DNA of 31,020 nt from a virus. The translations under genes and the position numbers were made by a program. Position 1 is the stretch's first letter; each line of letters starts with the position of its first letter. The stretch spans positions 1-31,020 of the IMG/VR virus record IMGVR_UViG_3300036985_003093; one strand, given 5' to 3'. Shown piece after piece: positions 3,290-30,844 of the stretch. Under the pieces are notes generated by a model. That model made no database searches, was not told the origin of the DNA, and saw only the letters and a program-made list of their open reading frames with translations.

Positions 3290-4276
3290 TTATTCAGTCT
3301 TTGACTTCAGGCCAGCCACCAGCCCGTTGACGTTCGTCGGTGTCCACGGCAGATCTGTTGAAGGGTTCTCTTCAAGGATTCGTGTCTGAAGCCCCAGTGA
3401 TGTTGTTGGAGTCCATTCCGCGCCGACTTCAGTGCCGCCCTTCACGAAGTTCAGTTTTTTCAGCGTGCCGCCATCTTCGTTTTTTGCGAGTGCTGACAAC
3501 TGGATTCCGGCAACCGTTGTGATGCCCGTTAAATTGGTGAATTGCACTTGAGCAATCTGATTGTCAGCGTTGCTGCCGATGAACTGGCCAGAGTTGTCTG
3601 GCACGTTGTCCAGCACATTGAAGGCATTCGCTGCGCCAGAGACAGACCACTGCTGAGTAGCATCGTCGGCACTCGGAAGAAGCGTTTCGACTCTTGCTTC
3701 CGGGCCTAGCCTCACGTTATTGGCTGTGCCAGTGTTGTCCAGAATGTACCAGTCTGAAATCTGATATCCGGCGACTATATCGTCTCCATCAACAAACCAT
3801 CGGACGGCGGTTCCGAATGCCGTTGATACCTGTGTCGCTATCAGAACCCCATCCACGTAAAGCGAATCTGTTCCGCTTGCATATTGCACCCACTCGACAT
3901 GATGCCACTCGCCGTCGTTCAGGCCGAGATCCCCCTTGGCTGTCGCGTTGACTGATACGCCAGCATCCGACAGCACTAGCGCGGACGTCCCTCCTCCGGT
4001 GATTTGATACTTCGTTTCTTGGCGCGGTGCTGACCCTGTAGCCTTGACACAGAATCCGTGAATAAACTTCGTCACCCCGGAGGCCGATAAGGCTAGGCTG
4101 AAGCCTCCGTTGTCGCCAGTGTCCGCGTACAGCAGAAAGCCGCCGGATGTTGCGTAACGGCCTGCCGCGTAGGTGATATCTCCAGAGAGAATTGACGAAT
4201 AGACCCGAGCCAGCTTCGTGTTCAGCGCGCCCGAAGCGACGTATTTTCTGAATCCGTCCATGTGCCGAATTGACAT
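3290..4276 (-). CDS. LamG/concanavalin-like lectin-fold virion protein
   Basis: 328 residues. The region around residues 120-150 has the LamG signature order: DGEWHHVEW, then an SLYVDG hairpin ending in VLIATQ, as in laminin-G/pentraxin-type beta sandwiches. The N-terminus is basic (MDGFRKY). The C-terminal 120 residues, with RVETLLPSAD and an ALAKNEDGG segment, look like a structural region predicted to be mostly beta. No signal peptide or membrane segment, which fits a cytoplasmically assembled virion protein. Probable role: a carbohydrate-binding fibre, spike or capsid decoration. A second Met at residue 6 could also be the start. It follows a strong hairpin at 4311-4348. Confidence 0.72.
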   Translation of the reverse strand: MSIRHMDGFRKYVASGALNTKLARVYSSILSGDITYAAGRYATSGGFLLYADTGDNGGFSLALSASGVTKFIHGFCVKATGSAPRQETKYQITGGGTSALVLSDAGVSVNATAKGDLGLNDGEWHHVEWVQYASGTDSLYVDGVLIATQVSTAFGTAVRWFVDGDDIVAGYQISDWYILDNTGTANNVRLGPEARVETLLPSADDATQQWSVSGAANAFNVLDNVPDNSGQFIGSNADNQIAQVQFTNLTGITTVAGIQLSALAKNEDGGTLKKLNFVKGGTEVGAEWTPTTSLGLQTRILEENPSTDLPWTPTNVNGLVAGLKSKTE

Positions 4277-18437: not shown

Positions 18438-19622
18438 CTAAACCCTGTCGTACTGTTCGTAGTTCGATTCAAATCGAAACTTTGCCCCGTTCATCCGCAT
18501 CGTGATCTCGCCAGTTGATCCGCCGCGCTGCTTCGCAACGTCGATGATGCTTTCAGGCCCGTCGTCACTTTTACTCAGCAGTAACACGATGTCGCTGTCC
18601 TGCTCGATGGCCCCCGACTCACGCAAATCTGCCAGTGATGGCTTGCCGCGTTTCGCTGATTCTCGATTAAGCTGTGAGCCAACGAGGATCGGAATTTGGA
18701 GATCCATCGCGAGTCTCTTCAGTCGCCTGCTGATCGTCGCGATCTGTCGCTCTCGGTTATCGTTTCGCGTGTTTGGAACTTCGGCAAGCTGGAGGTAATC
18801 AATCGCCACAACTCCGATTTTGAATCGGCGACAGGCAACGCGAATCAGAGCTACGATGGTTCCGAGATCACTTGTTGTGTCGATGAAATACAGCGGAAGG
18901 CTTGCGATGTTTTCGGATGTTCGCGTTCGGCTCAGCCTGTCTGCGATTTCTTCTTTGAGCATTTCCAGACTGACAATCAGAGCCCCTTCGCCGCGTTCCG
19001 CAATCCCGACCGCGATCTGAGTCAGCAGAATAGACTTGCCTGTCCCCGGCCTGCCGCCGATCGTGATGATCTGTCCATCGCGCAGCCCGCCGATTCTTGA
19101 ATCGATTTCCTGAATTCCTGTCGCGTGCGTCGTGCGAGGATTAGCCTTTCGTTCAGCCAATCCGATTACAGCGTCCTGAGCCGTGCTGATTTCGTCTTTG
19201 TGGCCGCGTTTAATCTGATCCAACTTCGTGATGTACTGATCGATTGTGTCAGCACTGATGCTTTGCTCAGACGCCAGCTGCTGGCCGATCGTGTGAGCCT
19301 GATCGCGTGCGGCGTACTGCCGAAGAATCTTGCAGTAGTGATCGACGTGCGAGGCTTCCCACGGTGACGACGACAGATCTGTGAGAACGTGAATACCAAC
19401 CGAAGTCTGAACGGCGTAGGTTCTCGTCATTTCCTCCAGCACGATTACCGGATCGAATTCCTGACCGGCTTCGGATAGTTTCTTCAGCACGCCGAAGATG
19501 CGCCGAAGATCGATGTTTTCAAAATCGGTGTCTTCGATCTGACACGCAATTCTGTCCAGTTCGTCATGCCCGGAGAAGGCTCCGCAAACAATAGCTTTTT
19601 CAGTTTCGTTACGGCTTTCCAT
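18438..19622 (-). CDS. DnaB-like replicative helicase
   Basis: 394 residues. An N-terminal DnaB-N-like helical region (ETEKAIVCGAFSG, then FENIDLRRIFGVL) is followed by a RecA-type core: Walker A GGRPGTGKS (189-197), catalytic E220 in VSLEM, Walker B VVAIDYLQL (D275), and the KQRGGSTGE arginine-finger block (365-372). It unwinds DNA at the phage fork as a hexamer. It is a little shorter than host DnaB (about 450-470). Its start overlaps the upstream replication gene by 14 nt, so loader and helicase are coded together. Confidence 0.92.
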   Translation of the reverse strand: MESRNETEKAIVCGAFSGHDELDRIACQIEDTDFENIDLRRIFGVLKKLSEAGQEFDPVIVLEEMTRTYAVQTSVGIHVLTDLSSSPWEASHVDHYCKILRQYAARDQAHTIGQQLASEQSISADTIDQYITKLDQIKRGHKDEISTAQDAVIGLAERKANPRTTHATGIQEIDSRIGGLRDGQIITIGGRPGTGKSILLTQIAVGIAERGEGALIVSLEMLKEEIADRLSRTRTSENIASLPLYFIDTTSDLGTIVALIRVACRRFKIGVVAIDYLQLAEVPNTRNDNRERQIATISRRLKRLAMDLQIPILVGSQLNRESAKRGKPSLADLRESGAIEQDSDIVLLLSKSDDGPESIIDVAKQRGGSTGEITMRMNGAKFRFESNYEQYDRV

Positions 19623-20556
19623 TTTCGCTCCTGACGTCCTTCAGGTGACTCTCGAATAGTTCTTGCAGGTTCTTCAGCTCGAAGTCGTTGGCGTCTGCAA
19701 CCTTCGATGATCCGGTTCGCTTTAGTGCTTCGAATCGTTCCGGTCCGAGTAGCTCCTTTCGCTTCTGCCAATCCGTTGGATGAAGCCGACTGGCCTTCTG
19801 TGCTTCGATCCAATCTTCAGATGATTTCTGTTTGGACTTCGATGTGATTGACGCCTTGGGCTTCGTCAGTGTCCGCCAGCCGTTGGCCATCGTGTGATCA
19901 ACTGAATCGCAAAACACTTCCGACGAACCGAACTGCCTGGCAGCGTCCCGCCAGAAAGATTCTTCCTGGGGAGATCCGCTTTGAGGAACTTTGTCATAGA
20001 ATCCCTTCGACAGGCAGTAATCAAACCACCTTCTGGCTGCAGCTTGTGCTTGTTCTGTATCCAGCTTTTTCGGAATGACGACGTCACTATCATTCTTACT
20101 TTCCTTTACCTTACTTTCCTTTACTTGTACGGCGACGACTGGCAGATCAGTGGCAGACGACTGGCATGCGACTGGCAGATCAGTGGCAGATTCATTAAAA
20201 ACACTGGTGTTTTCGATGTCTATTTTTTCGATCCACCCGACATCATCGCGCGAAAGCAACTCAAGCGCCTTCTTGACTACCTCTTCAGGCATTCGAAGCG
20301 TGAGCGCCAACTGCCTGGTGGAAAGTGGCTTTCCGTCACTCCTGGCGAGCAACCCTCGGATGACTGGGCGACAAGTGGCGGACCACTGGCAGATTCCCTG
20401 GAATACACCAATCGCAAGGACGCCATCAGCGCCGTGAGCCATCAGTGAAAGGTATCCAGCGGAGTCGATCCCCGAAGGACAGCTGAACCACTGAAGGCCG
20501 CAAAGTTTCCGCGTCTTGGCGGTCTCAAATGTCTCTGACCATTTGCGAATCCGCAT
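19609..20556 (-). CDS. Phage replication organiser/helicase-loader candidate
   Basis: About 315 residues from MRIRKWSETF; starts at 20571 or 20592 would add a few residues. The region at residues 70-100 has a winged-helix look (KPLSTRQLALTLRMPEEVVKKALELL), as in DnaD/replication-organiser N-domains. A Ser/Thr/Lys-rich linker follows and then a C-terminal helical segment with AAARRWFDYCLSKGF, as in DnaD-tail proteins. Directly upstream of a DnaB-like helicase, this layout fits an origin-binding or helicase-loading protein. No ATPase motif is seen, so it is not a DnaC/DnaI-type AAA+ loader. Confidence 0.7.
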   Translation of the reverse strand: MRIRKWSETFETAKTRKLCGLQWFSCPSGIDSAGYLSLMAHGADGVLAIGVFQGICQWSATCRPVIRGLLARSDGKPLSTRQLALTLRMPEEVVKKALELLSRDDVGWIEKIDIENTSVFNESATDLPVACQSSATDLPVVAVQVKESKVKESKNDSDVVIPKKLDTEQAQAAARRWFDYCLSKGFYDKVPQSGSPQEESFWRDAARQFGSSEVFCDSVDHTMANGWRTLTKPKASITSKSKQKSSEDWIEAQKASRLHPTDWQKRKELLGPERFEALKRTGSSKVADANDFELKNLQELFESHLKDVRSENGKP

Positions 20557-20560
20557 TATC

Positions 20561-20644
20561 TCACCGGCCATTACGCTTCGACTCCCATTCACGCAACGCA
20601 GAAAGCTGGCGAGCCTTTTCGGCGTCGAATTCAGCTTGTGTCAT
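20561..20644 (-). CDS. Possible 27-residue leader peptide of the replication gene
   Basis: A charged helical peptide (MTQAEFDAEKARQLSA onward) with a GAGG site before its ATG. It stops 4 nt before the replication gene's ATG, and the longer start of that gene would lie inside it. It may be a translational coupler. Its small size leaves real doubt. Confidence 0.38.
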   Translation of the reverse strand: MTQAEFDAEKARQLSALREWESKRNGR

Positions 20645-26961: not shown

Positions 26962-27222
26962 TTACTTCCGCTTTCGTGATGACTTCGTGACATTCTGCTG
27001 AGTCGGATCGAACCGCTTCAGCCATCGCTTTACCGATGCTTTTGAGATCAGGGTCCGCTGGCCGTCCTTCATCTTGTCGAGGATCTTTTCGCGAATCATC
27101 TTGGCGACTGTGAATCGGCTGCGAGCCAGGATGGCGCACGCTTCTTCCATGCTGTACCAGTGTTCCGAAGCAGCTTCAGGTATGACGTTTCGCTGTGGTT
27201 TCTTTGTCATCGTCTCACTCAT
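26962..27222 (-). CDS. HTH_17/MerR-like DNA-binding protein, first early gene
   Basis: 86 residues from the ATG with GGAG upstream; sequence further upstream in this frame overlaps the operator and the divergent gene, so longer starts are rejected. The core (HWYSMEEACAILARSRFTVA, then KMIREKILDKMKDGQRTLIS and KASVKRWLKR) is the winged-helix HTH of excisionase/MerR-type proteins, with the wing at ISKASV. The tail is very basic. It is the first gene of the leftward operon, just below the TTGAWCAA array, and is a good candidate to bind it or act as excisionase. Confidence 0.75.
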   Translation of the reverse strand: MSETMTKKPQRNVIPEAASEHWYSMEEACAILARSRFTVAKMIREKILDKMKDGQRTLISKASVKRWLKRFDPTQQNVTKSSRKRK

Positions 27223-27330
27223 TTTGGTTTCTCCGTTGGGTCGTGTTGACTGGCGAAGAATAGCCGCGAACGGAGAGGCCGCAAGATGGCTGTGAGTCGA
27301 TGAAAACAACAAAATTTGCGCCGAACTCGT

Positions 27331-27378
27331 TTGAACAAGATTGATCAAGTTTGAACAAAAGAAATCCAATTTGATCAA
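27331..27378. promoter_or_regulatory. Helically phased TTGAWCAA operator-like array
   Basis: TTGAACAA at 27331, TTGATCAA at 27341, TTGAACAA at 27351 and TTGATCAA at 27371 start exactly 10, 10 and 20 bp apart, so all lie on one face of the helix. TTGATCAA is itself a palindrome. The array sits in the 264-nt gap between the early operon and the divergent Mrr-like gene. Promoter-like AT-rich DNA flanks it. Probable operator for a phage regulator; an origin-type iteron array is the alternative. Confidence 0.72.
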
Positions 27379-27486
27379 GATAAAACTTTCAGATTTATTT
27401 TGCCGACGTGCTGCAATGTGCAGTGATGTTGCGCAAAATGCCCGACGAGTCGCAATGACGCGATTCCATACCGGGACTTGCGAGCA

Positions 27487-28485
27487 ATGAATGAGCAGGA
27501 TGCAAACGAGATTGCGAACCGCGTACGAACTCTGCAGGATCGCCGCGTGAATCTCGTGAGTCATCAGCGAGTGATCCAATCGCAATTGAATGCCGCGAGC
27601 AGAGAACTGCGATGGAATAAACTCACGGCCTCATTCCTGCTAACGTCGATTCACTTGCGACCACTGGCCGACAAGCTGCAGACTGGCCGATGGTTCGTTG
27701 TGCTGGTCGGAACAGCCGTTCTGGCCGCAACGTGCTTCGTGTTCGCGGATATCCTGATCGGCTTTCGCGGATTCAGCATCATCTCTGGAGTCAGCATTGC
27801 GATTGCGACCGCCGCCGCTTTGATTTTGATGCTTTACAGTGGCGACGATGATGACGTTCTTCGATCGCATGAAAACTCAGTTCACACTCTGCGTCAGATT
27901 CAGAGTCGCGTCAGTGCCATCACTGAAGACCACAGGCTTGCAACTGCGGCGCTTCGGTCGTGCGATGCTGAGCTATCAACTGCGGAGCGATCACGAATAG
28001 ATGCCGCACGAGCGTTGAGCCAGAGGCAGGCCGCGCGACAGGTTGAAGATACGAGAATGATTCCGCTTCGAAGGCTGTATCAGCAGAACTGGCGAGCGCT
28101 CCGAGATATTGAATTCGAACGGTATCTGGAAACCGTCTTTCGCGCCCTGGGATACACAGTCGAGACAACCGCACTCACAGGTGATCAAGGCGTTGATCTT
28201 GTGGTGTCGAAGAATGGCGTTCGAATTGCAATACAGGTCAAGGGCTATCTCCACTCAGTGAGCAACACGGCGATTCAGCAGGCGTTCGCCGGTATGGTTC
28301 ACTATCAGTGCGACCGCTGCGCCGTCATCACAAACAGCCGATTCACAAGCGGGGCCGTTCAGCTCGCCGAAAGCGTGCGGTGCATACTGATCGATGAAGA
28401 CTGCTTTGAGTCCTTTGTGATGGGGCAAATCGATATCACCACACTACATGTTGGGGGTGTCGTCGGAAAGAAATCAATCTTGTGA
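27487..28485 (+). CDS. Membrane-anchored Mrr-like restriction endonuclease
   Basis: 332 residues from the ATG at 27487 (a TTG three codons earlier is possible). An N-terminal coiled coil (about 1-60) is followed by two transmembrane segments (about 69-90 and 96-117), then a second coiled coil to about 190. The C-terminal domain (205-310) is the Mrr/restriction-endonuclease fold: FERYLETVFRALGYTVE, D237 in GDQGVDLVVS, Q250-V-K252 in IAIQVKGY, and CAVITNSRFTSGA. Nuclease anchored at the membrane would meet incoming DNA, so an anti-phage or superinfection role is inferred. It is the only long plus-strand gene of the early region besides the integrase. Confidence 0.8.
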   Translation: MNEQDANEIANRVRTLQDRRVNLVSHQRVIQSQLNAASRELRWNKLTASFLLTSIHLRPLADKLQTGRWFVVLVGTAVLAATCFVFADILIGFRGFSIISGVSIAIATAAALILMLYSGDDDDVLRSHENSVHTLRQIQSRVSAITEDHRLATAALRSCDAELSTAERSRIDAARALSQRQAARQVEDTRMIPLRRLYQQNWRALRDIEFERYLETVFRALGYTVETTALTGDQGVDLVVSKNGVRIAIQVKGYLHSVSNTAIQQAFAGMVHYQCDRCAVITNSRFTSGAVQLAESVRCILIDEDCFESFVMGQIDITTLHVGGVVGKKSIL

Positions 28486-28706: not shown

Positions 28707-28883
28707 TTATTTCTCGAACTGTTTCTTCAGTCGGGCAATCTCAGCCTTCAGCGTCAATCGAATCCAGTTACTCATTGACTGGCCTGTTTCCGCCGCCGCC
28801 GCCTCATATTCAGATTTTTCTGCCTCGGTTGCTTTGAACCGGACTGAATCATCACGCTTCTGTTTTGCGGACTCTTGTGTCAT
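28707..28883 (-). CDS. Ribbon-helix-helix small DNA-binding protein
   Basis: 58 residues. The order is a beta strand RDDSVRFKAT, helix EAEKSEYEAAAAETG, turn and helix SMSNWIRLTLKAEI, then a basic end (RLKKQFEK). This is the Arc/MetJ/CopG ribbon-helix-helix pattern, also seen in the N-domain of MobC. AAAGGAG stands 5-6 nt before the ATG. It lies opposite the two plus-strand promoters and shares its leader with the 28946 promoter, so it may be an autoregulating repressor of the lysogeny region. Confidence 0.75.
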   Translation of the reverse strand: MTQESAKQKRDDSVRFKATEAEKSEYEAAAAETGQSMSNWIRLTLKAEIARLKKQFEK

Positions 28884-29376: not shown

Positions 29377-29412
29377 CGCCACACATTGTGTGGCGGTTAC
29401 TGACACATGTCA
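29377..29412. promoter_or_regulatory. Tandem palindromes upstream of the excisionase-like gene
   Basis: A perfect 19-bp palindrome (29377-29395, arms CGCCACACA/TGTGTGGCG around one base) is followed 5 nt later by TGACA-CA-TGTCA (29401-29412), which covers the ATG of the next gene. Such paired palindromes are typical operators. Confidence 0.6.
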
Positions 29413-29664
29413 ACACATTCGGCAAATTTACTGCCGCCCCTGCCTCAAACTGGCTGGACAACCGATGCTCCCTGGTGTGCCGCTTTGGGAGTTCAGCAGA
29501 CGCATTTCAGAAAACTGCTGACAAAATACAATATTCCTTGCTTCTACTTTGGGGCAAACGTCCTGCTTGAAGCCGAGTCCGCCTACAAGCACATTTCGAA
29601 ACTGATGGCGATTCCACCCGATGACCAGCCAAAACAAAAGAAAGTCACCAAACGGAACCGGTAG
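29407..29664 (+). CDS. HTH excisionase-like protein overlapping the integrase
   Basis: 85 residues. An HTH-like core (PWCAALGVQQTHFRKLLTKY, then IPCFYFGANVLLE) resembles excisionase/MerR-type winged HTH proteins; the tail is Lys-rich (PKQKKVTKRNR). The start is fixed because an in-frame TGA lies 6 nt upstream of the ATG. No ribosome-binding site is seen. The last 44 nt overlap the integrase start, so the two are coupled. Probable directionality factor or integrase regulator. Confidence 0.62.
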   Translation: MSTHSANLLPPLPQTGWTTDAPWCAALGVQQTHFRKLLTKYNIPCFYFGANVLLEAESAYKHISKLMAIPPDDQPKQKKVTKRNR

Positions 29665-30798: not shown

Positions 30799-30801
30799 CA
30801 G

Positions 30802-30844
30802 TGGAGGATGACGGAGTTGAACCGACGACCTCTTGCATGCCATG
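30802..30844 (-). other. 3' fragment of tRNA-Ala(GGC): integrase core site
   Basis: Minus-strand 43 nt from the anticodon loop to the discriminator base: loop ATGGCAT (anticodon GGC), stem GCAAG, variable AGGTC, T-arm GTCGG-TTCAACT-CCGTC (one T-T mismatch), acceptor ATCCTCC and A. It is close to bacterial tRNA-Ala(GGC), whose anticodon arm is CTTGC-ATGGCAT-GCAAG. The 5' half is absent: beyond position 30844 the sequence departs. It is therefore an att core, not a tRNA gene. Confidence 0.8.

What the first reader, a model, noticed from the sequence alone, without database searches (positions are those of the whole stretch)
27331..27378. Four TTGAWCAA boxes phased at exactly one helical turn
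Copies start at 27331, 27341, 27351 and 27371, all in 10-bp register, in the gap between the early operon and the divergent Mrr-like gene. Equal phasing puts every site on one DNA face, which suggests cooperative binding of a protein filament or multimer. This is unlike the staggered operators of lambda-type repressors. No CI-type repressor was found in this window, so the regulator may be the small HTH or RHH protein.
Basis: partly seen in the sequence, partly recalled or inferred. Interest (0 to 1): 0.72.

Follow-up and report, generated by a model that had tools for sequence, protein, structure and literature searches.

The report
Phage switch operator phased per turn
A phage control region carries evenly spaced DNA boxes, one per helix turn, that most likely hold a row of small switch proteins; a distant relative keeps the same layout and position with different boxes, so the array is a real operator, of an already known kind.

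Summary
The array is real. TTGAWCAA lies at 27331, 27341, 27351 and 27371 in exact 10-bp register, with one degenerate slot (27361) and a partial sixth box (GAAC, slot 27321). No shuffle of the window reaches it. It sits midway in a 264-bp gap between the first early gene (26962-27222, winged-helix HTH_17/excisionase type) and a divergent Mrr-like gene.

TTGAWCAA itself is not conserved. But the only detectable orthologue of the HTH gene (IMG/VR contig L007, 30-33% identity) has, at identical distances from its start codon, the same promoter-like block (TTGCGG -62, TATTCT -40) and the same CTGAAAGTTTT (-170). Between them lies a 10-bp phased array over the same six slots, built of a different box (CGG in 6 of 6). 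Layout is conserved; box sequence was replaced. The two proteins differ most in the recognition helix (1/14 identical).

Best explanation: an operator for cooperative head-to-tail binding of the HTH_17 protein, as in phage 186 Apl, Xis proteins and BldC; the model's best PDB matches are Pukovnik Xis and BldC. Binding is inferred, not shown. New member of a known kind.

The parts
27331..27338 (+). box 1, TTGAACAA
   Evidence: exact match
27341..27348 (+). box 2, TTGATCAA
   Evidence: exact match
27351..27358 (+). box 3, TTGAACAA
   Evidence: exact match
27361..27368 (+). degenerate slot (GAAATCCA) in register
   Evidence: sequence
27371..27378 (+). box 4, TTGATCAA
   Evidence: exact match
27321..27328 (+). 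partial sixth box (CCGAACTC; GAAC in register)
   Evidence: sequence
27382..27414 (-). conserved block A holding CTGAAAGTTTT (-170 from HTH start codon in window and in L007); function unknown
   Evidence: alignment with L007, 0 of 2000 shuffles
27257..27285 (-). conserved promoter-like block for the HTH operon: TTGCGG (-62), 16 bp, TATTCT (-40)
   Evidence: same positions in L007; one match in the window, none in the other fetched phages
26962..27222 (-). HTH_17 / excisionase-type winged-helix protein, 86 aa, first early gene; proposed binder
   Evidence: Pfam HTH_17 1e-9, TIGR01764 above cut-off, fold match to Pukovnik Xis and BldC
27478..28485 (+). divergent ORF with Mrr-type nuclease domain
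   Evidence: Pfam Mrr_cat 1e-22

Best explanation
The array is the operator of the phage's early control region. Monomers of the HTH_17 winged-helix protein encoded by the first early gene bind the boxes side by side, one per helical turn, all on one face, making head-to-tail contacts and probably bending the DNA. The bound row regulates the leftward early promoter (autoregulation) and probably rightward transcription towards the divergent gene, as Apl does in phage 186. Shown: the array, its significance, the conserved position and register beside an orthologous gene, the conserved flanking promoter-like block, the protein fold class. Inferred: that this protein binds, cooperativity, bending, the sign of regulation.
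For: Array far beyond chance. In L007, the only contig with an HTH orthologue, promoter elements and CTGAAAGTTTT are at identical distances from the start codon and a different box (CGG, 6 of 6 slots, 0 of 3000 shuffles) fills the same slots at 10 bp. Protein passes the excisionase-domain cut-off; model best matched by Pukovnik Xis Z 8.3 and BldC Z 7.1, also lambda Xis, Tn916 Xis, P2 Cox, RdfS. Recognition helix 1/14 identical versus wing and last helix 13/26, as expected if specificity changed along with the boxes. Apl: direct repeats 10-11 bp apart, product of the first early gene, regulates early promoters (PMC7498355).
Against: No binding data. The conservation rests on two phages. The HTH upstream regions of more distant phages have no such array. 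In L007 an XRE repressor gene also flanks the array and could be its binder there. No matching boxes seen near the presumed attachment site.
Confidence: 0.72

Rival explanations
1. Operator for a different protein: the phage RHH protein (28707-28883), a lysogeny repressor not recognised here, or a host regulator, binding the near-palindromic 8-bp boxes as dimers (MetJ- or ParR-like).
For: TTGATCAA is a perfect palindrome; RHH proteins are known to bind tandem boxes (general knowledge); in contig L170 a phased TTGAACAA set lies beside a small gene that looks RHH-like by eye (no Pfam hit).
Against: The same slots in L007 hold non-palindromic boxes; no RHH relative found in the L007 record (no positive control); no HTH_3 repressor in the window.
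Confidence: 0.2
2. A neutral 10-bp tandem repeat that arose by slippage and has no regulatory role.
For: Unrelated contigs carry similar tandem repeats of this box (L003, L004, L005, L170, L177, L184).
Against: The same six slots are phased in L007 between two conserved blocks; the units are diverged and interrupted rather than identical.
Confidence: 0.05
3. Phased A/T tracts that bend the DNA by themselves, or a replication/partition iteron set, rather than a regulator site.
For: Local A+T richness (41% GC) and 10-bp phasing.
Against: The L007 array in the same slots is G+C-rich; a better origin candidate, 11-bp iterons at 20138-20191, lies elsewhere; no strand structure (z -0.2).
Confidence: 0.03

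Closest known systems
Phage 186 Apl operators between pR and pL (and P2-type Cox)
   Same: Direct repeats one helix turn apart in the early control region, regulator encoded by the first early gene, small HTH protein of the excisionase kind (PMC7498355).
   Different: Here the boxes lie upstream of a divergent early promoter, not between face-to-face promoters; no boxes seen at the attachment site; no CI-type gene; box sequence differs.
Xis excisionases (lambda, Pukovnik, Tn916)
   Same: Same winged-helix fold; Pukovnik Xis is the best structural match; head-to-tail binding one turn apart reported for lambda and Pukovnik Xis (cited in PMC7498355).
   Different: Their studied sites are at att; this array is about 2.2 kb upstream of the integrase gene and more than 3 kb from the presumed attachment site.
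BldC of Streptomyces
   Same: MerR-like winged-helix protein, multimers on direct repeats one helical turn apart (PMC5859096); second-best structural match.
   Different: Host developmental regulator; box consensus AATTXXXX(C), which these boxes do not fit.
RdfS of ICEMlSym
   Same: Winged-helix excisionase that oligomerises and binds its own promoter as well as attP (PMC11963761).
   Different: RdfS sites show no clear consensus; here the boxes are sharply defined.

Membership tests
Apl/Cox/Xis-type phage regulator and operator array | small winged-helix protein of the excisionase class | tested here: met
   HTH_17, TIGR01764 above cut-offs; fold matches
Apl/Cox/Xis-type phage regulator and operator array | direct repeats about one helix turn apart in the early control region | tested here: met
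   also L007
[quoted passage not shown]
   gene order from ORF map; conserved promoter-like block directly upstream
Apl/Cox/Xis-type phage regulator and operator array | second set of similar boxes at the attachment site | tested here: inconclusive
   none seen downstream of int, but attP limits are not known
Apl/Cox/Xis-type phage regulator and operator array | cooperative binding, bending, excision activity | not testable with these tools
   needs purified protein
BldC regulators | boxes fitting AATTXXXX(C) | tested here: not met
   boxes are WTTGAWCAAR against consensus in PMC5859096
lambda CI/Cro-type repressor operators | cognate HTH_3 repressor | tested here: not met
   no HTH_3 in window; found in three related records searched the same way
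RHH (MetJ/ParR-like) tandem operators | palindromic boxes conserved with a cognate RHH gene | tested here: inconclusive
   window boxes near-palindromic, L007 boxes not; no RHH relative in the L007 record, no positive control

The most novel reading that the evidence does not exclude
In this phage group the row-forming operator evolves by wholesale box replacement: length, register, slot number and promoter distance stay fixed while every box and the recognition helix of the cognate protein change together, giving a switch of interchangeable specificity that needs no CI-type repressor.
Probability: 0.4. Interest if true: 0.6.

Novelty: new member of a known kind. Interest (0 to 1): 0.45.

Why it matters
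Xis/Apl/BldC-type proteins are thought to read DNA loosely. Two phages with the same promoter, spacing and slots but different boxes and different recognition helices form a natural specificity-swap pair, which would let the recognition code of these row-forming proteins be tested directly. It also suggests looking for such operators by conserved register rather than conserved sequence.

Tried and rejected
Conservation of TTGAWCAA in relatives: none of the 80 loci around the recombination gene nor the 13 around the exonuclease carries the array. HTH homologues were not found in phages, plasmids or genome contigs, nor in IMG/VR beyond L007. The first AlphaFold model, from two sequences, was poor and was replaced. 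Upstream regions of other HTH_17 genes show no convincing phased array: L227/L228 give a period-9 signal, possibly codon-related, and L230 a weak 11-bp one. L008 has an HTH_17 gene with palindromic TTTACGAGAACGTAAA repeats instead; the L006 control region has no significant lag-10 signal. Host not identified; the tool does not draw relatives for virus records.

Full report
Observation. The four boxes are exactly where stated. Written as 10-bp lines the region reads GCCGAACTCG TTTGAACAAG ATTGATCAAG TTTGAACAAA AGAAATCCAA TTTGATCAAG. Three boxes are adjacent, one slot is degenerate, one further box follows, and the slot before the first still has GAAC in register. TTGAWCAA occurs once elsewhere in the window (4980). 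A motif-free test (any 8-mer, at least 4 of 5 slots, periods 8-15) singles out this array; 0 of 200 whole-window and 0 of 1000 intergenic Markov shuffles match it.

Setting. The window is a 31,020-bp virus record, not shown to be complete. Genes from 26962 leftward look like the early operon: an HTH_17 protein, a YqaJ exonuclease, a phrog_3657 protein and a DnaB-like helicase. Rightward lie an Mrr-type nuclease ORF, an RHH gene and a tyrosine integrase. The array lies 109-156 bp upstream of the HTH start codon and about the same distance from the Mrr-like start.

Relatives. TTGAWCAA is not conserved among contigs that share the recombination genes. One contig, L007 (IMGVR_UViG_3300035703_000251), carries an orthologue of the HTH gene (BLASTP 1e-14, 30% identity). 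There the gene is divergent from an XRE repressor gene. I placed the XRE start at about 3257, where GAAAGGG precedes the ATG; a longer reading frame starting at 3383 would overlap the array.

Key comparison. Anchored on the HTH start codon, both phages have TTGCGG at -62, TATTCT at -40 and CTGAAAGTTTT at -170. Both flanking blocks align far beyond chance (0 of 2000 shuffles each). The 60 bp between them do not align (22% ungapped identity; 1997 of 2000 shuffles score as well). Yet both are 10-bp phased over the same slots. In L007, CGG recurs in six of six slots starting at -155 (0 of 3000 shuffles), with lag-10 self-identity 28/50 (1 of 5000 shuffles). In the window GWTC recurs in five of the same six slots. 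The promoter-like pattern occurs in no other fetched phage. So the layout was kept while the box was replaced. This argues against a chance repeat and, because the L007 array is G+C-rich, against simple A-tract curvature.

Which protein. The HTH_17 gene is the regulator found beside both arrays. It passes the Pfam and NCBIfam excisionase-domain cut-offs. An AlphaFold model from nine phage HTH_17 sequences has a confident core (pLDDT about 90 for residues 21-70). Its best matches by VIA-align are Pukovnik Xis (Z 8.3) and BldC (7.1); RdfS (6.1), Tn916 Xis (5.4), lambda Xis (4.9) and P2 Cox (4.9) are also listed. Foldseek too ranks Pukovnik Xis first, with modest E-values, and an HTH_17 profile finds it by sequence (6.9e-6). 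A Z below 8 can reflect a common fold, so this shows fold class, not function. Between window and L007 the turn and recognition helix keep 1 of 14 residues while the wing and last helix keep 13 of 26, as expected if specificity changed along with the boxes.

Mechanism. In phage 186, Apl binds direct repeats 10-11 bp apart, seven between its early promoters and five at attP, as cooperating monomers that bend and spread along DNA; it is encoded by the first early gene (PMC7498355). BldC protects tracts one helical turn apart (PMC5859096). RdfS binds its own promoter (PMC11963761). The most likely mechanism here is the same. Binding, cooperativity and the sign of regulation are inferred. A second role in excision is not supported: no matching boxes were seen downstream of the integrase, where a sequence like a tRNA 3' end (about 30801-30835) suggests the attachment site.

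Limits. The conservation argument rests on two phages. The host is not known. That no classical repressor is present rests only on a missing HTH_3 match.

Noticed in passing
20138-20191 (and 20095-20124): Five 11-bp direct repeats (ACTGGCAGATC type) plus a 15-bp tandem repeat inside the gene 19609-20592 next to the DnaB-like gene; a possible replication origin.
   Followed up: partly
30801-30835: Sequence like the 3' half of a tRNA gene just after the integrase stop codon, no full tRNA called; likely attachment site.
   Followed up: partly
29407-29664: Small ORF overlapping the integrase start, no family match, weakly like an int-adjacent ORF in L098 (E 0.79); could be the dedicated excisionase.
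   Followed up: partly
27382-27414: Conserved block with CTGAAAGTTTT at -170 in both phages; not an obvious promoter; function unexplained.
   Followed up: partly
L008:258-520: Palindromic TTTACGAGAACGTAAA-like repeats on both sides of an HTH_17 gene: a different operator style in a related phage.
   Followed up: no
L006:3929-4174, L007:4607-4840: CsrA-like proteins encoded in the early operons of two related phages, just before the exonuclease gene (by eye).
   Followed up: no
L166:896-943, L170:2201-2250: 10-bp phased TGATCAA/TGAACAA sets in unrelated phage contigs, intergenic in both.
   Followed up: partly
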